Notes under the pieces: generated by a model
Told to the model about the DNA's origin: nothing
The model's database searches: none
Seen by the model: only the letters and a program-made list of their open reading frames with translations
Assembly (NCBI RefSeq): GCF_011745365.1
Contig: NW_024468911.1
Span: 2,226,759-2,290,758 of the forward strand
Source of the DNA: Cryphonectria parasitica EP155
Taxonomy: Eukaryota > Ascomycota > Sordariomycetes > Diaporthales > Cryphonectriaceae
Direction of reading: 5' to 3'
Length of the DNA stretch: 64,000 nucleotides
Made by a program: the position numbers and the translations under genes
Shown here: positions 45,923-64,000 of the stretch, piece by piece
How positions within the stretch are numbered: the first letter of the stretch is position 1
Layout: each line of letters starts with the position of its first letter

Positions 45923-46145
45923 ATGGGAAGAACAGAACCATCCATCGGTCGGCGCGATGCACGGGCAAAAAGGGCCAAAGCCACAGCCAACAAGCTGATC
46001 CCCTCGCTGCTCTCGGCTCATCCCCCTCCGGCCCAGCGAGCCCAAAACTGCTGCTGCAGCCTCCTCCGCCGTCTTGCCAACTAGTGCACCAAGTCTCCGT
46101 CTGACCATCCGCGCCGTGGACACCCTCACTGCTGCCCGTTCGCTG

Positions 46146-46182
<37 letters not shown>

Positions 46183-46199
46183 AGCACAGCCCAGGCGGC

Positions 46200-46260
<61 letters not shown>

Positions 46261-47195
46261 GCTCCACCGCTGCCGACAGAGTGGCTATCCTCAACATGGC
46301 CTCGCCGCTCTCGCCAGGCGGCGGGTTCCTTAACGGCGCCACCAGCCAGGAAGAGTCCCTGTGCATGGCGACTACGCTCCTCCCAGCCTTACGCGACGAG
46401 TTCTACCGCCTGCCAGAGGTGGGGTGTGTCTACACCCCCGACGTGCTCGTCTTCAGGACAATGGCATCGTCGTCATCGTCGTCGTCGTCGTCGTCGTCCT
46501 CTGCGGATGTAGCACAGGACGGAGAGCAGACTGATCTGCTTCCCAAGAGGGACAGGTGGTTTGTTGATGTCGTGAGTGCTGCTATGCTGCGCCTGCCTGA
46601 GACCGAGATCGATGAAGATACGGGGCTTGGAAAGTATGTTCACGCCAAGGACAGGGAGCTTGTTATCGACAAGATGAGGGCTGTGATGCGCGTTTTTCAA
46701 GCTAAACAGGCGAAAAGGGTTGTCCTTGGTGCTTGGGGCTGTGGTGCGTACGGGAATCCCGTCGGTGAGGTTGCAAGGGCGTGGAAGAAAGTGCTGCTCG
46801 GTGGGAATAGCAAAAGGGTGAAGCAGAAAGGAAAGGCTGCTGAACCTCGGAGCGCTTGGGACGGGATCGAAGAGGTGGTGTTTGCGGTCAAGCATGCCGG
46901 GATGGCCGAGGCTTTTCAGGCTGCCTTTGGTAAGGAGCACTTGGAGTGGGTGGATGATGAGGTCGGAGACGTGGAATCACAGGGTGGGGAGGAGGATGCT
47001 GAGGAGAAAAGACAGAGCGATGAGGTTTCTGAGAGAATTCGTGGGCTCAAATTGCGTATTGATCGTGCACCCGATCCTCACGTCAAGGCAGGGCTGGAGG
47101 CGGTGCTGGCAGGATTACTACAGAGTCAAAAGTCTATGGTTTCAATATCTTCAAAGGAAGAGTATGATAGCGAACAGGAAGAGGACGTATGTTGA
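45923..47195 (+). CDS. Microbial-type PARG (TIGR02452/DUF2263) protein with apparent frameshift
   Basis: The catalytic part is one frame from about 45999 to 47195. It shows VAILNMASPLSPGGGFLNGA, QEESLC, YTPDVLVFR, RWFVDVVSAAMLR and GAWGCGAYGNP, the pattern of the microbial-type poly(ADP-ribose) glycohydrolase (macrodomain-like) family, which removes ADP-ribose. That frame has no ATG before the first catalytic strand. An ATG at 45923 opens a frame encoding RRDARAKRAKATANKLIPSL, which looks like the family's N-terminal helix, but it needs a +1 shift near 46040-46055 to join. No GT donor lies in between. Either a base is wrong or mutated, or translation starts at a non-AUG codon. A Gln tract (13), an Asn tract (20) and a Ser tract interrupt the domain; the C-terminus is acidic. 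Confidence 0.75.
46146..46259 (+). repeat. CAG/CAA and AAC trinucleotide repeats encoding poly-Gln and poly-Asn
   Basis: 46146-46184 is 13 CAG/CAA codons and 46200-46259 is 19 AAC codons plus one AAT, separated by the five codons HSPGG. Both lie inside the PARG-like coding frame, so length changes add or remove whole residues. Confidence 0.95.
46467..46502 (+). repeat. TCG/TCA repeat encoding poly-Ser
   Basis: About twelve Ser codons, mostly TCG, within the PARG-like domain between VLVFR and the next conserved block. Confidence 0.9.
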
Positions 47196-54512: not shown

Positions 54513-55987
54513 ATGAATACAGGGGCACGAAAAGAAGCACCGAAAACCAGCACAGGCGCCAACCCTGCTGCCATCAGCCCTGAAAAGCCTGGCGGAGTCT
54601 TGGAAGACGCCCACCGAGCCCAGCATGAGCCCAAAATTCAGGATCCTTCTCCTCCCAAAGAGGACTTCTTAGCGTGGCTCCAGGTCGTGGGTGCCTTTGC
54701 CCTCAATCTGAACACATGGTAAGAATGTACTTGCTCTGTTTTTATGATCATTTAAGCTGTCGCTGACGTGGCCCGTCGTTTGTCCAATTTAGGGGTTTGA
54801 TGAATGCGTATGGGGTCTTCCAAACATTCTACCAGCTCGACCTTCTCAGTTCCCAGTCGTCGTCCAGTATCGCCTGGATCGGTTCCACGCAGGCCTTCCT
54901 ACTGTTCCTCGTCTCCGTTATAACTGGTCCAATATTTGACGCCGGCCACCTTCGCTCCCTGCTATGTATCGGTCTCGTCCTGGTCGTCGTGGGCATGATG
55001 CTCACCAGCATCACCAGTCGGTACTGGCAAGTGTTCCTGACCCAAGCCGTCATGATGGGTCTCGGCTTTGGCTGTTTATATCTGCCGGCACCTGCAGTCG
55101 TCTCCCAGTATTTTCACAGACGCACAGCGCTGGCCATGGGCGTTTCGTCTCTAGGCGCTGCCTTAGGTTTGTGGTTTTTACCGCATCTTTGAGCGACTTC
55201 TGAAGACGTGGCTGATATTCTTCGACGTTTAGGAGGTGTTATATACCCAATTGTTTTTCACCAGCTTCAGCCACGCATCGGCTTTGATTGGACTGCTCGC
55301 GCCCTCGGCTTCATCATTCTGGGAACTACGATTGTTCCAGCCGTCCTTATGAGGTCCAGAGCACCACCAGCAGCAACATGGAGCCTTATCGATCGCGCAG
55401 CATTCACAGACGGCCCATATCTCCTATTGAATCTAGGTCTTGTCTTCGGCTTCATGGGTCTATACATCGTCTTTTACTACATCCAACTGTTCTCTCTCGA
55501 CCGCACCGACGTCTCCTCGGGACTCTCCAATTACCTGCTTGTGATCATCAATGGCTGTTCACTCCTTGGCCGCACAGTCCCCGGCTATTATGCGGACAAG
55601 ATAGGCTCCATCAACGTGCAGACTATGGCCGCTTTCATCGGGGCCATCTTGACATTCTGCCTTCTGGCAATTCATACTACTCCAGCTCTTGTTGCATACT
55701 GCGTGTTGATTGGTATCTGCTCCGGCACGTTCATGGGACTGCCCGCTGCCGGAGTTATCAGTCTCTCGGCAGACAAGAGCAAAATCGGGACGAGGCTGGG
55801 AATGACACTCGCCATGGTAGGAGTCGGCGTGTTGATTAGCAATCCAATTGCTGGGGCCATTGTGGGAGAAAATCGGAATTGGGTAGGACTGGTTGTCTGG
55901 TGTGGTGTTCTATTAGTCGCCTCAACTGCGTCACTGATGGCAAGCAGGATCGTCAAGGTCGGTCCTGGACTCACCAAGGTACTATGA
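54513..55987 (+). CDS. Monocarboxylate-type MFS transporter
   Basis: Predicted exons 54513-54718, 54793-55166 and 55233-55987 give 444 residues. The ATG at 54513 is chosen because the upstream in-frame residues are atypical for the family; 54465 (MKIREER..) is an alternative. After a hydrophilic N-terminus the first helix starts as WLQVVGAFALNLNTWGLMNAYGVFQTFY, the hallmark of the fungal monocarboxylate porter (Mch) family. Twelve hydrophobic segments and the loop motif GRTVPGYYADKIG follow. In fungi this family includes riboflavin and nicotinate importers and many exporters found in metabolite clusters. Its position beside the O-methyltransferase and UstYa genes suggests export of a cluster product, by inference only. 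Confidence 0.9.
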
Positions 55988-56299
55988 GAAGGCATTACAC
56001 CAATTTGGCTGGTTCTACAACACACAAAGGTAGCTCTGAGCGTCCCAGCGCATAGGTTGAGGCTGATGACGACTAGAATTTGACTCTTTGTGGAGGATCC
56101 AGTGAAATTCATCATTCGATCTGTCCATATTCACACAGAGATTCTCTCCATGAATCCCAAGATATCCATGTTATCTTCCTGAACATCTGAGATTTGGAGC
56201 CCGATAGAGTTCAATACGGGACCTCCTAGATCACAACGGCTGTTTCGTACGTGAAGGCTGTGGGTGCTTGTCTTTCGTCCTGGCTCACTGTACGCATTC
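55988..56299. other. Convergent intergenic region
   Basis: Only the 3' ends of the transporter and the rhodopsin-domain gene lie here. Nothing else is seen. Confidence 0.6.
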
Positions 56300-57704
56300 T
56301 TATAGCGCCATTGGACGGTCCCCGTGAGCCTCCGGGACCCGGCCCAGCTCAAAGTCATAGGCTTCGCCGCTCTCGGTGTCGCGATCCTCGCCGGCACGAA
56401 GCTCAACAGGCCCTCCATATAGTACTGTCGAAGATGTCTCGTGATCTCTTGCTTTGTTATCGTTCCCGGTGTTGGGCATTTGTTGCCATCTTCCATAGCT
56501 ATTCCCCGAGGGATTCTCCCTCGAGTGGTCCCACTGGCTTCCTTTTCTCGCAAAAATTGGCCTCAGGGTTGGAATGGACACGCATATGAGCACGAAATAC
56601 GCTTCTAGGCTGAATAGGAAGGTGTCAGCACCGCTGAGAAGATTTGGGACCATATTGTCGATGGCTTGAATGGGTTCTTGATACTTACGTCCACCAGATT
56701 GCAAGTTCAGCCATGCCATCTGATTTATAGCGATGCGTGAGCAAAGATACCGGGTATTTCGTTCCCGGGACGTTGTGCTTCTTACATGTAAGATCGTTTG
56801 TCTTGCCGATAGCTTCGAGCTTGACTGTCTTGATGATGGATGCGACCATGGCACTGACGGGAACTGTTAAATCTAGTGGGCAACCAGCGCGACGCCGATA
56901 GAAAGACGAACTCACAAGATACCAAGACCCATCATGCAACTCAGAATGACTTTTTGTTTCCGTCCCATATTCAGGTTCCAGAACAGACTTGCAGGAAAGA
57001 CCGCGAGTAAGAGATCTACCAGCGAACAGACAGCTATAAATCGATCAGTCGGGGGGATTTCTTCAGAAAGAACGGGGTTTTTCTCTTACATCCTTGGAAA
57101 AAGCCCGTATATTCCTGGATATGAACGTCCCAACAGGTCCCGACGATGTTGTGGTCCCAGAAGCGTTGTATGGGTTGACACTGGGACATGCTGATGATGA
57201 CTGTCCCGACATCGACCACAAACTGTACAGCGATGATAGTCCACAGGAACCTCCGACGCCCTTTGGTAGGGGTCACAATGTTGAGGAGTAAATAGGCATA
57301 CGAGATCCGACCGAAGCACGGGCACATGATTGAAAAGACTTCACACAAGTAAACCCATTTGACCGAGTTCATTTGATGTAATGCATCGAGATTCTGCACA
57401 TGCTGCCCAAGGCCCCACGAGACGGCAATGGAGACAAAGATACTATCCCCAAGCGCTAAGGCCTGCCACGAACCGAAACATGTCAACCCTAAGCTGAGTA
57501 GGCAGAGAAGGATGATGACAATATAACGGGACTGACTACACTCACTAGGGTGAATAGAATGATCCAGTCATCGAGAGAGAGCCTTTGAATGATATTTCTG
57601 CGGACGTAAAATCGTGCTGTGACGATAACGATGGCGATGAAGCTGAAGACCCACGCCACAGCGACAAGCGCGGGTCCAAGATTCTGAGACGTATCACTGG
57701 CCAT
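56300..57704 (-). CDS. Fungal rhodopsin-domain (Pth11-like) integral membrane protein
   Basis: Six predicted exons: 57704-57546, 57462-57090, 57033-56916, 56853-56786, 56719-56689 and 56609-56300. They join in phase to about 299 residues. Seven hydrophobic segments are visible. Family motifs are SLDDWIILFTL after the first helix pair, CQPIQRFWD with its paired Cys after the fourth helix, AVFPASLFWNLNM and a final segment ending in SIPTLRPIF. The last 65 residues are cytoplasmic and polar. The 31-base fifth exon is the weakest part. Proteins with this domain are abundant in Pezizomycotina, often next to metabolite genes; they lack the retinal lysine, and most have no known ligand. A role in sensing or in membrane steps is open. 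Confidence 0.82.
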
Positions 57705-58597
57705 GGAAACAAAGGATATCAGCACAAAAGACGCAGAAGGGAGAAGGGAATAGCGGGTTTCGGCACTGGTCACCTTTGGCCATCAGGAAGCGGTGAGATG
57801 GCGGCTTCTGAATGTGTGAAAAAGGAGTAGTTTATGGGAAGGAAGAAGAGGGGAGAAAATCGAAAAGGGAAAAAAGGACCGACATAGCGACGGCAATGCC
57901 CTCCAACTCATGCTCAGCAAAACATGTTTCATTAGCCATATGTTACCAACCTCTGTCATCTTTGACGTTTCTCAAGGCGCAAGTTGATGTTCGTACACGA
58001 CGATCTTGGCTCTAATTCGCCGAGGAACGACATCATTGCTTATGGAGGGATTTGAGTCCAAAGTTGAGCCACTTCGTATGCAAGACGGGAAAGGCTCACG
58101 CAGGCTGCACGAGACATTTCCGAGGCACACCGCTCGACGAAAAAATAGTGCACTGATACCGTTCGTTACGGTCGTGCAACCTCGTTGCTGATGCTTTGTG
58201 TCTGCCTCGGGATAGAGTGCTGTCGCACAGCATGAGTTTGGGTGACAGTGGTCAGCAGGGCTGTTACGTTTTTCTGCACACGCAGGGCTAGGCGAAATTT
58301 TGAGCCTTCCCAAAGTACCGTGCATCTCTCATGTCACAAAGAAATGCACCTGGGTTGCAGTCGCCTTCCAACGGTACAGGCAGTGAAACGCGATTGGCCA
58401 TACATCGTTGCGCGATTCCCCCACCAAGGATGTAGGCTATTCACTAACAAAGCATAAATTTCGTCATGGTTGTTGGACAACTCGGATTGCTGGGTGGGTC
58501 TGATTTTTGGTGTATGTCATTTCTTTTTCACCCTTTCATCTTGTTTTCTAGAAAGAAAAAAAGACCACACAACCACTTTGCCGAGGAACAATTTGCG
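57705..58597. other. Divergent promoter region of rhodopsin-domain gene and O-methyltransferase
   Basis: About 0.9 kb shared by two divergent genes. No gene is recognised; binding sites for a cluster regulator could be sought here. Confidence 0.55.
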
Positions 58598-60063
58598 ATG
58601 ACCGACCAAACAGTTGCCCTCATTGCACAGCTGAGCTCTTTGGGTGAGAAGCTCTCTTCGGGTGAGAGTGATCAAAGCGTACGAAATGAAGCACTTGGTT
58701 TGAGCCGCAGAATCACGGCGAGCCTCGAACAGCCGCAAAACATTGCAGTTGACCTGGCATTTTCTGTGTGTCCACTTTCACTTTTACTGTCCCGGGCCCC
58801 TCGCCCCCTCCAACCCTGATACTGGCATCAGCCGCCCATATTGACTGTGTACAGCCCCTCCTAGCTACGGCTGCCAGAATAGCCGATGGCCTGGATCTCT
58901 TCAAGCACATCGCAAGCAACAAGGGGCCCATCACCTCCCAGAAACTGGCATCCCTCTCTAATGGTGAAGAACTTCTGATCGGTAGGACACTCGCCTTCAT
59001 GTAAGAGGACAAACTTCGGTTTAACACCAGCACAGTTCGAGTCCTAAGGCCCCTCGCAACCATTGGTTTTATCAATGAAGTTGGGGAACAGACATGGGAG
59101 GCTACACCTATCACAAAAGCTATGGCCACGGAGGAGGTCGCCTCTGGGCATCGAATGGTGTAAGTCACATCGCCACTTGGTCTGCGGGATTCAGATCCAG
59201 ATGGGATACTCATACTAGAGTACAGTGGTGAGATGATCATGGGTGCCGCGCAGAAAGCACCAAACTATCTACGCGAGGCCGGTTATCGCTGCCCGACAGA
59301 TCCTCGTGATGGGTTTATGCAGTATGCATTTCAGACGAAAATGACGACTTTTGAGCTCTTCAGCACGATCCCGAGAATCTTCAAAGACTTCAACACCTTC
59401 ATGGGAAATACTATGGGGGCAAGGAACTATTGGGTTGACTGGTTCCCAATTCATGAACGTCTACTCCATGGTGCAAAGAGCAACTCAGCTCTGGTCGTGG
59501 ATGTAGGCGCTGGCAGGGGCCATGATGTGCTGGCATTCCATGCCAAGTATCCAGGTCGAGGGCGTCTCGTTCTCCAAGACCTGCAACCCGTGACTGACAG
59601 TCTTGCTGATCTTGACCCGGCCATCGAGGTTATGGCTCATGACTTCTTCGCTGAACAGCCTGTCAAGGGTAGGGAGAACCTCGTCTCTATTCTGGCTTGG
59701 TGCGGATATTTCGATATGGAACATTCCTGCTAATGTAACACAGGTGCCCGATCGTACTTCTATCACCACATCTTGCATGATTGGTCGGAACAATATTGTC
59801 TGAAAATACTGGAGCAGGTCAAAAAGGCCATGACGCCAGGATATTCCAAGCTCCTTATTCACGATTTAATCGTCCCAGAGCAAGGAGCCGACAAGTTCAC
59901 CGCCGTATTTGATCTAGTCATGATGGCTTTCAACGCTGGGATGGAGAGGACCGAGACTCAGTGGAGGGAGCTACTCGACAAGGCCGGTTTTGAGGTGATC
60001 AAGGCATGGCCACCCCCAGAGGCGGGTGCAGACGGCATCATCGAAGCTATGCTTAAGGAATGA
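58598..60063 (+). CDS. SAM-dependent O-methyltransferase (Methyltransf_2 type)
   Basis: Predicted exons 58598-58765, 58855-58981, 59036-59159, 59226-59668 and 59744-60063 give 393 residues. The N-terminal part is the winged-helix dimerisation region (about residues 50-130). The SAM-binding glycine motif is VVDVGAGRGHD (about 230-240). The catalytic base is probably His299 in HILHDWSE, followed by KLLIHDLIVPEQG and the C-terminal substrate-binding helices. The family methylates phenols and similar hydroxyls, as in sterigmatocystin 8-O-methyltransferase. It faces the UstYa-family gene tail-to-tail only 141 bases away, so it may act on the same product, for example on a tyrosine-derived phenol. 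The first intron boundary is the least certain. Confidence 0.9.
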
Positions 60064-60204
60064 GAGATTTTTGTATGCATAGCACCCTGCAAATCCATTC
60101 TATTTGGGAGGGTATATAGATCAGCCATCAACTTCCGGATTCCTCCGGTCCACCATCAACGTTGCTTTCACCAATTCTGCATGTACCATTTCCAAACCGA
60201 TTAA

Positions 60205-61311
60205 TTACAAGAAAGCTTCCATAGAGCCTGGCCTTTGCAGCAACTCCACCTCAAACAAATTAAATGTCCGCTCTGAGGCCCATGAATTCAGGGCCTCCCA
60301 ATTCGCGCAAGTGTGCGAATCGACATCGAAATTGGTTGGGTAGAACCCAGACTTGTCTTCAGGGTGTTGTGCAGTGTTGTTGATCCAGCGAAATGTGACC
60401 ATGGATAGATCCGGCTGGCACATGAGCGCTTCGCGGATGTATTCTACACAGTGATCTGATTTTGAGCCTTAGCATGGATCCTACTTGTACTCATACCACA
60501 CTATAACGTACCAACATGCTTAGCCTCACGTTGCATTGCATCGTCTGACTTTCCATGGTGATAGTAATCTTTGAATAGCATTCGCTTGACCTTCTTCTGT
60601 TGCATTGGTTACTGTCAATCAGTGATCTCTGGCCAGGTGTTCTAGCTTACAAGGACGTACCAAACAGTGTAAAGAGTGAAAGACGCTGAGAGAAACAATC
60701 CCTTCGGATCCGTTCTTTGTGTATATCGATGTCAGGTCGTGTTGGTCAAGATACTCCTTCGGTACTTTGATATTATCGTCTAAGTTAAACGGACCAGATT
60801 GTCAGAGATCATCGGAATATCGTGTTTTCCGCACGTTATAGAATGCAGACACATCAATATGGACTCACTGCGGAGTAGATCATGCCACGCCTTGTCGAGA
60901 GCTGGCCGTGGTTTACCAGCGAAAGGGTTATTTTCAATGTTTGTAAGAAAACGACGTTGTTCCCAGATGAGTTTGCTACCATCAGGCACTGTGAAGACTG
61001 GGTATGAGTCATTTGGATAGCCACGAGGATCGCAGTAATGAGGAGATTGCCGACGGCTTGACCTTACGAGTATTCTGAGTGCGATTTGTTGGAATTAAAG
61101 CCGAATTAGGCAGAATAGCTGTAGGTTCGGGGCGGAAAGAGACCAAAAGAACGAATAGTAGTGTGTACAGTGAAATTAAGCCTCCGTGGAGATATAGAGT
61201 CCAAGAGGTCTCCGACCGTCGGCGTGAGACGTCTTCTGTTCCAAGTAATGGGTCTTCGATTTGGTCTGGAATGTTCCCATCTTCCTCAAAGGATTCTTTT
61301 GAGTCCATCAT
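60205..61311 (-). CDS. UstYa-family (DUF3328) oxidative cyclisation protein 1
   Basis: Predicted exons 61311-61068, 60997-60869, 60779-60661, 60596-60512 and 60455-60205 give about 275 residues (the second exon could begin at 60988). A short cytoplasmic N-terminus is followed by one membrane helix (about residues 38-59). The lumenal part has LTNIENNPFAGKPRP.., then both family motifs: HSLHC (159-163) and HVDHC (191-195), the second created by the last splice junction. The C-terminus HTCANWEALNSWASER is also typical. UstYa proteins are copper- or iron-type oxidases, shown by genetics to be needed for ether or C-C cyclisation of ribosomal peptides such as ustiloxin, asperipin and phomopsin; some act on other metabolites. 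It shares a 381-base promoter with the second UstYa gene. Confidence 0.9.
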
Positions 61312-61692
61312 TTTGCTTTCGTTGGCAACTTAGGGGCAGGCGACATGTGAGTAGACTAGCCAGAGAAGCAAACAACTTGCAATGGTTGAGTAGATTTTCC
61401 GAGGTGGGTAGCAAGAGTAGGCAGCCAGACTATACTGTGGAACCAGTACAGATTATATGCAACTTGGGGTTCCCCAGTGATGTAGCAAGAAAGGTTATGC
61501 ACGAACATCCATCCATCCAGTAACGGCAATATTTCTCTGGGCCGTTTGGCCCGATCAAGAATACTCGGATGTGATAATGCAGTGTATGCCCCGAGTAAAC
61601 ACCGTCTTACGTGCTTATATTCTGCCGACAGCGCCTGAATTTTTATTTCATTTTGGCGGTTCATCTCAGACACTTCCATTTCGCATTCCAAG
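61312..61692. promoter_or_regulatory. Bidirectional promoter of the two UstYa-family genes
   Basis: 381 bases between divergent start codons at 61311 and 61693. The arrangement implies co-regulation. I see no unambiguous binding motif. Confidence 0.6.
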
Positions 61693-62511
61693 ATGTTGCT
61701 CTACGGACGTCTACGCGGGTATCATCCAGTCTCTCAGGAGGCGATTTGGCCGTGGGGCGGGCATGGCAAGCACAAGGGTTTTCTTTTCATGATGATGACA
61801 GCTCTCCTATCTGGCTTTTTAGGATTTACAGCTGGCTCATTTTTCTCCATCTTTCCCAAGCCCGATTCAGACGTGAAGACATTGATTCTTCAACAACCGG
61901 GAGTCAACATCAAAGAGGTTTTCACCAGCATCCACACAACGTTCACGTATAACCGTACATTCGGGGCAGACCCTGAAGTTGACACAGCAACAGCGGAGGC
62001 TTGGGATTCGATTGTTCCACGTACGTTTGCTACGCCCATTTCTTACCCTTGGCCACTTTTCCCGGGCACGCCATGTACACGACTGACCATATGCATCGCA
62101 ACGATTCAGTTGGACAAGGTACAGTCCAATTCCCGCCGCATAGCGCCCAGTTTCACACACTCTCTGTTGTGCACCAGCTGCACTGCCTCGTGAGTTTTTC
62201 TGCGCAACCTATCATATTGCGAGTGTTGGTGCTAACTTCCGATTCAGTGGGCCCTTCACCATTCCTACTACACCGCCTTGCATCGAGGCAATGGGGGCGA
62301 GGACACTGCATTAGGCCACGTCCGACATTGCTTTGACTATCTACGGCAGAGCCTGACATGTGCCGCCGATATGACCTTAGAGCCAATCGACCACACCCTG
62401 GGAGGCGTCACGGGGTGGGGAAATCCTCGTCTTTGCAGAGACTACTCCGCAGTGGCGGCCTGGGCAAGGGAGCATCGCGCAAATAACTTGAAAGGTTTCT
62501 CACATGAATAA
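61693..62511 (+). CDS. UstYa-family (DUF3328) oxidative cyclisation protein 2
   Basis: Predicted exons 61693-62020, 62110-62189 and 62248-62511 give 223 residues. A membrane helix spans about residues 30-52 after a basic cytoplasmic stretch. The lumenal domain has YNRTFGADPEVDTATAEAW, then the two metal-binding motifs HQLHC (131-135) and HVRHC (160-164), and a C-terminus LCRDYSAVAAWAREHR. The first intron carries a CTGAC branch site, and both introns keep phase. It is shorter than protein 1 and clearly diverged from it, so the pair is not a recent duplication. As a partner of protein 1 it may catalyse a second oxidative step or form a heteromer, as the UstYa/UstYb pair of ustiloxin synthesis is thought to do. 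Confidence 0.9.
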
Positions 62512-63862
62512 CCTTCAAGCGTGCCAGAATATGCGAGCATGACGCGAGGTTGCATCTCTCTACCTATGGTTGGTCTGCGGTGAAACGGTCAGGGAAGGGA
62601 TGAGCACCGAGTTTCCCGATGATGCTTGATAGTGCAATCCAATCAGGCTGGCTCGATCCATGATACGGCGGCAGTTTCCAGACATTGTGACCGCTAGAAC
62701 TGGCCCCTTCGCACCAGGGTAAGACATTATGTGCTACGCACCTTCCAGGGATTAACTTTCGTACTTTGTCGTCCATATAGTACATACTGAATAGCATAAG
62801 AACAGATCTATTCTGGTAAATGAATGCTTGGTTTCAGCAAAACCTGGTTATAATATGGGTAGTGGACACCAGAAGATCAATGGCAGGATGTGTTCAGCCT
62901 CGGTGGCGATGTGAGAAAATCCATTCCTGGAAACTGATTGGATGGACCGTTGACGATCTCCAAACACTGCTGCTCCTGTAAGTTCGAAAGCCGAAGACCG
63001 TGATGGAATTCCCAAATTCGACCGGCCCCCATATCTTTCTCCACTATCAAATAATCCCAAGGTGTGACGGGCGGTGAATTCATAAGACGTAACCTTGACG
63101 GTCGTGTTACTGTGGTACATCAGCACCCAGGAATATCTCATCATGGGGTGCTTGGATGCTACCCAAGAGAGAGAGTAAGTTCAACAAGGGCTAATGCACG
63201 AGGCTGACATCAGTTACAATCCCGCCGTAGTACAGATAATACTTGATCCAAGTGATTCGTACAGTCTGACAGCTTGGGCGTGGATCAGCATATCCTTCTA
63301 TGTGTTCTTGTGATTCTGATTACATTGATGGGAAGATGATCCTCTTATGTTGACAGACACTAATGCAGTACAAGGTTACAAGGCTGTCAATAGTACCATG
63401 TGGTGAGCGCGGGTTTTTAGTCCTTGCTACCATCTTCATGGTACTAGATTTCAACCTCGTCCACATGTTTACAGTGTTGGTTGGTTTCTAAGTATTTCCC
63501 AGATCTGCAGATGACGCAGGACGCGTAAGGGTGATTTTTCTTGCGGCGGATGTTGATCTGAGGATTGTCCATTCGGTTGATGTGATGCGGAGAGGTGGGC
63601 TGCATATGCTGCAGTCATCGAAGACACCCTGATTCGACATCAGCATCCGAGAGTCGAGAAGAACAAAAGAGTTTGCATGAAGAGGGATGGGGTCCGAAAA
63701 CTCAAACTAGAGTGTTGAGATGTATTGGTGTAGTTGACTATAAATCTCGACGAGGGGAATTTTGATCTACATTTTCCAGGCACCTAAATTACCTGCCCCT
63801 CTCAAGGCCGCTAGATCAATCCGTCAACTTCTTCCACCACAGACCTCTACTACGTTGCCAAC
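62512..63862. other. Intergenic region before the secreted-peptide gene
   Basis: About 1.35 kb. Two overlapping minus-strand frames at about 62850-63144 are open but show no domain, no clear start and no clear splice signals. The right part is the promoter of the gene at 63863. Confidence 0.5.
63739..63744 (+). promoter_or_regulatory. TATA box of the secreted-peptide gene
   Basis: TATAAA lies 124 bases before the ATG at 63863, with a C-rich leader between. Assigned by position and sequence. Confidence 0.55.
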
Positions 63863-64000
63863 ATGAAGATTACTCTCATTCTTGCCTACCTGATGACTGC
63901 TTTGGGCGTTGTTGCTCGCCCTGGTAAGTACAATATCCCCGAAATCCGAGGTTTCACAAAATGTTGTTTGCCGACGTAAGTTGACAGTACTGACTACGGG
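63863..64000 (+). CDS. First exon of a small secreted peptide gene, candidate RiPP precursor (partial)
   Basis: The ATG at 63863 has good context (CCAACATGA). The first exon (63863-63923) encodes about 20 residues that are nearly all signal peptide: a Lys at position 2, a hydrophobic core of Leu/Ile/Ala/Val, and a cleavage site after GVVA before RP. A GTAAGT donor follows at 63924. The intron may end at the CAG at 63985-63987, or TACTGAC at 63989-63995 may be its branch site with the acceptor beyond the window. Known dikaritin precursors are secretory proteins with a signal peptide followed by tandem cores between Lys-Arg sites; that part would lie past base 64000 and cannot be seen. Other small secreted proteins, such as an effector or a wall protein, remain possible. 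Confidence 0.6.

What the first reader, a model, noticed from the sequence alone, without database searches (positions are those of the whole stretch)
54513..64000. Candidate undescribed dikaritin-type RiPP biosynthetic cluster
Seen: two UstYa-family genes each with two HXXHC motifs, an O-methyltransferase, a monocarboxylate-type MFS transporter, a rhodopsin-domain protein and the signal-peptide exon of a small secreted protein, all within 9.5 kb. Known: the ustiloxin, phomopsin, asperipin-2a and epichloecyclin loci combine UstYa proteins, a secreted precursor with Kex2-cut repeats, methyltransferases and exporters. Inference: this locus makes a modified, methylated cyclic peptide. No polyketide or non-ribosomal peptide synthetase is visible in the window.
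Basis: partly seen in the sequence, partly recalled or inferred. Interest (0 to 1): 0.9.

Follow-up and report, generated by a model that had tools for sequence, protein, structure and literature searches.

The report
UstYa cluster with one-copy peptide
A fungal gene cluster that carries three peptide-modifying oxidase genes and, between two of them, a gene for a tiny secreted peptide without the usual repeats; it may make a modified peptide by a one-copy version of a known fungal route, but the product is unproven.

Summary
Window 54.5-64.0 kb encodes an MCT-type MFS transporter, a fungal rhodopsin-domain protein, an O-methyltransferase and two UstYa proteins with two HXXHC motifs each. A third UstYa gene lies 0.6 kb beyond the window end. 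The 63863 gene, read to its end, is a 43-residue secreted peptide without repeat or dibasic site. It sits between UstYa B and C; such a gene model arose in 2 of 400 resampled gaps (rules set after seeing the gene). So the Kex2-repeat precursor that defines a strict dikaritin was not found. The same kinds of scan found repeat precursors at 5 of the 17 other UstYa loci of this genome. No ketoacyl-synthase, condensation or Terpene_syn_C_2 match lies within 1.7 Mb. Best reading: a UstYa-type RiPP locus with a single-copy, non-Kex2 precursor. Main rival: UstYa tailoring of another small molecule. A plausible new variant of a known kind; moderate interest.

The parts
54513..55987 (+). MCT-type MFS transporter, 444 aa, 3 exons (54513-54718, 54793-55166, 55233-55987); putative exporter
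   Evidence: gene model; Pfam MFS_1; PDB matches to monocarboxylate transporters; export is inference
56300..57704 (-). Fungal rhodopsin-domain membrane protein, 374 aa, 5 exons
   Evidence: PF20684; link to the pathway is inference from position only
58598..60063 (+). O-methyltransferase, 393 aa, 5 exons; His-Asp-Trp where LepI has Arg-Asp-Phe
   Evidence: PF00891; best-scoring solved relatives: MpaG', LepI, OxaC
60205..61311 (-). UstYa protein A, 272 aa, 5 exons; one hydrophobic TM-like segment, then HSLHC and HVDHC; 3 N-glycosylation sequons after that segment
   Evidence: The last intron is taken as GTACGT..AATCAG (56 nt), which scored equal to the one the script printed and keeps the second HXXHC; exon 5 is then 60205-60455
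61693..62511 (+). UstYa protein B, 223 aa, 3 exons; TM-like segment then HQLHC and HVRHC
   Evidence: divergent from A across 381 bp
63863..64000 (+). Candidate precursor peptide gene, 43 aa, 2 exons; exon 1 63863-63923, 82-nt intron, exon 2 beyond the window (64006-64076 in window numbering, L009:4006-4076). Beyond it, also outside the window, follows UstYa C, 278 aa, 3 exons, HNLHC and HALHC (L009:4639-5637)
   Evidence: peptide; no Pfam match; no second copy found in the genome. UstYa C:

Best explanation
A UstYa-type ribosomal-peptide locus whose precursor carries one core only. Proposed working: the 43-aa peptide enters the ER and its signal peptide is cut after Ala18 (my reading), leaving 25 residues with one Tyr and one Trp. 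The three membrane-bound UstYa proteins, whose HXXHC domains should face the secretory lumen, oxidise it (cross-link, hydroxylation or desaturation, most likely at Tyr30 or Trp38). Peptidases trim it, the O-methyltransferase methylates it, and the MCT-type transporter exports it. Shown here: the genes, their order, the UstYa motifs, the peptide gene model, absence of repeats and of the searched synthase families nearby. Inferred: that the peptide is the substrate, the residues modified, the order of steps, trimming and export.
For: The peptide gene lies directly between UstYa B and UstYa C; a published survey found UstYa-family genes most often at the position next to the precursor gene (PMC7329392, passages). 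Two-exon signal-peptide gene models are rare by chance: 1 site in 304 kb of reversed sequence and 2 of 400 resampled gaps; 0 in 84 kb of control DNA. Its codon score (0.177; other two frames -0.2 and -0.28) is in the range of five cluster genes (0.099-0.215). UstYa A, B and C keep both HXXHC motifs and, read by eye, the seven residues invariant in 9 paralogue segments. No ketoacyl-synthase, condensation or Terpene_syn_C_2 match within 1.7 Mb. The two best paralogues of B are in loci with repeat precursors, C8 and C4. One repeat precursor of this genome (C7, L018) has single Arg rather than Lys-Arg between units, so dibasic sites are not universal at its UstYa loci.
Against: No repeat and no dibasic site in the peptide. 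Its tail does not resemble the repeat units or secreted proteins of six other loci beyond chance (lowest of six: 798 of 3000 shuffles at or above; L020: 942 of 3000). 4 of 41 intergenic stop-free stretches score 0.161 or more on the codon measure, 2 of them above the peptide, and that measure was trained on the cluster genes themselves. No 8-mer in four or more and no 9- or 10-mer in three or more of five promoter regions, so no sign of a common regulator. The best paralogue of A (C1, L025) and one of the two best of C (L034) are in loci without a repeat precursor found. The methyltransferase and transporter families also serve small-molecule pathways. No peptidase was seen among the ORFs scanned. 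Conservation could not be tested. The scan rules were written after I had seen the gene.
Confidence: 0.45

Rival explanations
1. The UstYa proteins, methyltransferase and transporter tailor a small molecule that is not a ribosomal peptide (for instance an amino-acid derivative, or a product of a distant synthase). The 43-aa peptide is an unrelated small secreted protein.
For: UstYa proteins also occur in polyketide and non-ribosomal peptide clusters (PMC12048977, section 22). In this genome a UstYa match at C4:770381 lies 4.6 kb from a condensation-domain match at C4:775114. The methyltransferase scores best against MpaG', LepI and OxaC, enzymes of small-molecule pathways (recalled).
Against: No ketoacyl-synthase, condensation or Terpene_syn_C_2 match within 1.7 Mb; the flanking ORFs that I scanned include GH92, PARG-type, phosphatidylserine decarboxylase, transporter and DUF726 genes and no synthase. 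Stand-alone adenylating enzymes, prenyltransferases, isocyanide synthases and other terpene-synthase families were not searched for.
Confidence: 0.32
2. A classical dikaritin pathway whose Kex2-repeat precursor is encoded elsewhere in the genome.
For: Repeat precursors exist elsewhere (C1, C4, C6, C7, C8), and other dikaritin features are present here.
Against: Each of those five precursors has its own UstYa matches within about 1 to 5 kb. No tandem array of codon-length period (18 or more bases, 2.5 or more copies, score 50 or more) was found in the window or in the 34 kb beyond it.
Confidence: 0.1
3. No working cluster: neighbouring genes of unlinked function, with a UstYa trio of unknown use.
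For: No shared promoter word; no transcription factor among the ORFs scanned; rhodopsin-domain and MFS genes belong to large families (recalled).
Against: Three UstYa genes within 5.4 kb, a methyltransferase 141 bp from UstYa A in convergent order, and the peptide gene between B and C. By my grouping of the 36 matches there are 18 UstYa loci in 43.8 Mb, and of 12 Methyltransf_2 matches only this one lies within 40 kb of any.
Confidence: 0.13

Closest known systems
Dikaritins (ustiloxin, phomopsin, victorin)
   Same: UstYa proteins with two HXXHC motifs, secreted small gene product encoded next to them, methyltransferase, transporter
   Different: No repeated core, no Lys-Arg sites, no tyrosinase match within 90 kb; the methyltransferase is of the Methyltransf_2 kind, whereas PhomM methylates the N-terminal amino group (PMC6514808, passages)
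Asperipin-2a locus (precursor, one UstYa homologue, transporter, reductase; PMC6514808, passages)
   Same: Small locus with UstYa and transporter, no tyrosinase listed
   Different: Asperipin comes from a repetitive precursor (PMC9233826, passages); here three UstYa genes, a methyltransferase and no reductase seen
Lichen RiPP clans R1 and R2 (PMC12048977, passages and section 22)
   Same: UstYa-family genes, O-methyltransferase in R1, no repeated precursor found; the authors name a single core peptide as one possibility
   Different: R1 has a tyrosinase nearby; in what I read no specific single-core precursor is put forward, here a defined 43-aa candidate sits between two UstYa genes
Cyclochlorotine, astin and atpenin type clusters (UstYa proteins in non-ribosomal peptide or polyketide pathways; PMC12048977 section 22)
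   Same: UstYa proteins as tailoring enzymes
   Different: No NRPS condensation or PKS ketoacyl-synthase match near this locus

Membership tests
Dikaritin (strict: from a Kex2-processed repeat protein, cyclised by UstYa homologues; PMC10512285 passages) | Precursor with signal peptide and repeated cores | tested here: not met
   63863 peptide has 43 aa and no repeat; no repeat precursor seen in window 54-64 kb or the next 34 kb
Dikaritin (strict) | Kex2 (Lys-Arg) sites between cores | tested here: not met
   No dibasic pair; only Lys2 and Arg19
Dikaritin (wide: UstYa/DUF3328 as class-defining enzyme, as PMC12048977 reports of a 2021 review) | UstYa/DUF3328 proteins with two HXXHC motifs | tested here: met
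   A, B and C
Dikaritin | Secreted precursor gene close to UstYa genes | tested here: inconclusive
   A signal-peptide gene stands between B and C; that it is the precursor is not shown
Dikaritin (ustiloxin/phomopsin type) | Tyrosinase in the cluster | tested here: not met
   Nearest PF00264 match on C3 starts at 2382797, about 90 kb from the cluster
Dikaritin (ustiloxin/phomopsin type) | S41 peptidase in the cluster | not tested
   No search for the family was made; none appeared among the ORFs scanned
Dikaritin | UstYa-dependent modification of a peptide product | not testable with these tools
   Needs metabolite data
NRPS or PKS cluster with UstYa tailoring | Synthase gene in the cluster | tested here: not met
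   Nearest ketoacyl-synthase match 2.1 Mb, condensation 2.2 Mb, Terpene_syn_C_2 1.75 Mb away on C3; NRPS-like enzymes without condensation domain not searched

The most novel reading that the evidence does not exclude
A one-copy, leader-plus-core fungal UstYa RiPP: the oxidases act on a 25-residue secreted peptide that is not cut by Kex2, so a class that repeat-based mining cannot see exists beside repeat-type loci in the same genome.
Probability: 0.35. Interest if true: 0.65.

Novelty: new variant of a known kind. Interest (0 to 1): 0.42.

Why it matters
Published searches for such precursors lean on repeats: a survey of 250 secretomes set the minimum at three repeats (PMC6339444, passages), and a search around UstYa-family genes in one fungus asked for one or more tandem repeats with kexin sites (PMC9632046, passages). 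Here 13 of 18 UstYa loci, the window's and the unclear L029 included, showed no clear repeat precursor in the 10-20 kb that I scanned at each. If a single 43-aa peptide is the substrate at this locus, a simple rule (a short two-exon signal-peptide gene beside UstYa genes) would give testable candidates at orphan loci. If not, this is an ordinary orphan UstYa cluster.

Tried and rejected
Homologues of the peptide: the protein database was switched off, and the other sequence collections on hand hold prokaryotes, viruses and plasmids, so I did not scan them, apart from one megablast of the transporter DNA against plasmids that gave nothing. The own genome shows no second copy. Similarity of the peptide tail to the repeat units or secreted proteins of six other loci: not above shuffles, so the eye-catching EAxAY..ASV likeness to the C8 repeat is dropped. 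Shared promoter words: no 8-mer in four or more, no 9- or 10-mer in three or more of five promoter regions (8-mers in three were not counted). UstYa structure: model of a C8 paralogue segment, mean pLDDT 57, too poor for a fold search, so none was run. UstYa A has no sequence match in the PDB at E up to 1. The 110-aa ORF at 62851-63180 on the minus strand: codon score -0.005, no Pfam match, rejected as a gene. The NCBIfam match of the peptide (E 0.011, 15 bits against a cut-off of 327) is chance. The first splice script stopped with an error and was redone; a model for the downstream transporter came out of frame and was not used, its open frame L009:7397-8944 was scanned instead.

The signal-peptide and splice rules were written after I had seen the 63863 gene, so the 2-of-400 figure leans towards it. 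Of the five two-exon sites, one lies inside the rhodopsin-domain gene and is false; the others (63863, L015, L029, L030) have no expression evidence.
Full report
Where it lies. The window is C3:2226759-2290758 of a 43.8-Mb genome in 17 contigs. The cluster spans C3:2281271-2292395, window 54513 to 65637, so its last part lies beyond the window end.

The genes. Gene models were built from the DNA with splice-site and branch-site scoring and scanned with Pfam: MCT-type MFS transporter (+), fungal rhodopsin-domain protein (-), O-methyltransferase (+), UstYa A (-), UstYa B (+), the 63863 peptide gene (+), and UstYa C (+, outside the window at L009:4639-5637). Transporter: 12 of the 13 PDB rows are monocarboxylate transporters. 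Methyltransferase: the best-scoring solved enzymes are MpaG', LepI and OxaC. In the alignment it has His-Asp-Trp where LepI has Arg-Asp-Phe and MpaG' has His-Gly-Phe, which fits a true methyltransferase rather than a LepI-like pericyclase; that this Arg matters in LepI is recalled.

UstYa proteins. Each of the three has one strongly hydrophobic segment near the N terminus, two HXXHC motifs and one to three N-glycosylation sequons after that segment. That fits a lumenal catalytic domain (inference). Nine paralogue segments from other loci share seven invariant residues, one His, one Leu, four Cys and one Arg; by eye A, B and C keep all seven. UstYa A has no PDB relative by sequence at E up to 1.

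The 63863 gene. Exon 1 ends at 63923 at a GTAAGT donor; the intron has CTGAC before a TTAG acceptor; exon 2 (64006-64076) ends at TGA. The protein has 43 residues. Cleavage after Ala18 (my reading) leaves Arg19-Thr43 with one Tyr (30), one Trp (38), two Pro, no Cys and no dibasic pair. It has no Pfam match and no other copy was found in the genome. Codon score 0.177 against 0.099-0.215 for five cluster genes, on which the measure was partly trained; 4 of 41 intergenic stop-free stretches scored 0.161 or more. A scan for short two-exon signal-peptide genes found 5 sites in 213 kb of UstYa loci (one false, inside the rhodopsin-domain gene) and 0 in 84 kb of control sequence. Reversed sequence gave 1 site in 304 kb, and resampling of the 2.1-kb gap between B and C gave a site in 2 of 400. 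The scan's rules were set after I had seen the gene, so these figures are favourable to it.

Controls for the missing repeats. The UstYa family search gave 36 exon-level matches, which I group into 18 loci including this one. I fetched 10-20 kb at each of the 17 others. Secreted-looking repeat proteins (signal peptides read by eye, or by the scan) stand at five: C8 (12 ASVNK units, L020), C6 (6 AWSNF units, L024), C7 (8 WADVA units separated by single Arg, L018), C1 (14 REPHH units, His-rich, L021), C4 (two SYLIV units in each of two neighbouring reading frames, L015). A Tyr-rich protein at L029 is a sixth, unclear case, and an Asp-rich run at L030 was not counted. The dibasic scan alone found only two of the five and the tandem-repeat scan four, so each scan misses some. 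None of the scans found a repeat precursor in the window's cluster or the next 34 kb. One dibasic-rule row at window 7735 is a membrane-protein-like frame far from the cluster and looks like chance.

Synthases. On C3 the nearest ketoacyl-synthase matches end at 205214 and start at 4518520, condensation at 102112 and 4584291, Terpene_syn_C_2 at 528806, tyrosinase at 2382797. At other loci of the same genome UstYa matches do lie near synthases: C4:770381 is 4.6 kb from a condensation domain and C11:682973 is 25 kb from a ketoacyl-synthase. So the family alone does not prove a ribosomal product. Flanks: GH92, PARG-type, a lectin-like match below its cut-off, and phosphatidylserine decarboxylase upstream; transporter-like and DUF726 genes downstream. 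together scanned 11 chosen flank ORFs and one ORF in the gap between B and the peptide gene, not all ORFs.

Relatives inside the genome. Best paralogues: A with L025 (29% over 137 aa) then L024; B with L019 (31% over 157) then L015; C with L019 (63.2 bits) and L034 (62.4 bits). B therefore sides with loci that own a repeat precursor; A and C are mixed. The methyltransferase's nearest relatives (41-44% over parts) are on C10, C5 and C8, none of them near a UstYa match.

What it does. I think the likeliest use is oxidation of the 25-residue peptide by the three UstYa proteins, then methylation and export (0.45). Three UstYa homologues in phomopsin are reported to act in cyclisation and desaturation (PMC10512285, passages), so several UstYa proteins on one peptide have a precedent. 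A methyltransferase without a signal peptide acting after lumenal oxidation requires the product to cross a membrane; this topology is unexplained here.

Literature. Seen as passages: PMC12048977 (also section 22), PMC9632046, PMC7329392, PMC7099791, PMC9233826, PMC6514808, PMC10512285, PMC6339444. All other papers were seen only as search listings. In eight searches of an open-licence library I saw no UstYa cluster with a demonstrated single-core precursor; PMC12048977 names that possibility for lichen clusters. Most subscription journals are absent from the library, so this is weak evidence of absence.

Verdict.

Noticed in passing
L020:4677-5460 (C8:2090677-2091460): Repeat precursor with 12 Lys-Arg sites around APAYVWASVN units, beside several UstYa matches on C8; looks like a classical dikaritin-type locus.
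   Followed up: partly
L024:6818-7428 (C6:3371317-3371927): Repeat precursor with six 25-residue units (NWNAAAWSNFVKSYVDGAEEA type, Lys-Arg flanked) 1.7 kb from a UstYa match.
   Followed up: partly
L018:6000-6470 (C7:2282500-2282970): Secreted-looking repeat protein, eight 17-residue units (TTEGVVTWADVAA) separated by single Arg, near a group of UstYa matches.
   Followed up: partly
L021:1146-2300 minus strand (C1:903145-904299): Secreted-looking protein with 14 His-His repeats (REPHHQGKGKKNNGR) about 3 kb from a UstYa match; di-histidine precursors next to UstYa-family genes are reported in PMC7329392 (passages).
   Followed up: no
L015:3017-3613 minus strand (C4:106016-106612): Two neighbouring reading frames, each with two SYLIVxADEEPAT units, about 1.2 kb from the first of seven UstYa matches on C4; one of these UstYa frames (L015:8979-9638) lacks several of the motif His.
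   Followed up: partly
L029:7767-8700 (C4:773266-774199): Secreted-looking Tyr-rich protein between a UstYa match and condensation-domain matches on C4.
   Followed up: no
window 45999-47192 +: PARG-type protein with long Gln and Asn runs.
   Followed up: no
L009:4601-4612, upstream of UstYa C: A CGG-N6-CCG palindrome, the form bound by zinc-cluster regulators (recalled); no CGG-N0-12-CCG in the other four promoter regions tested.
   Followed up: no
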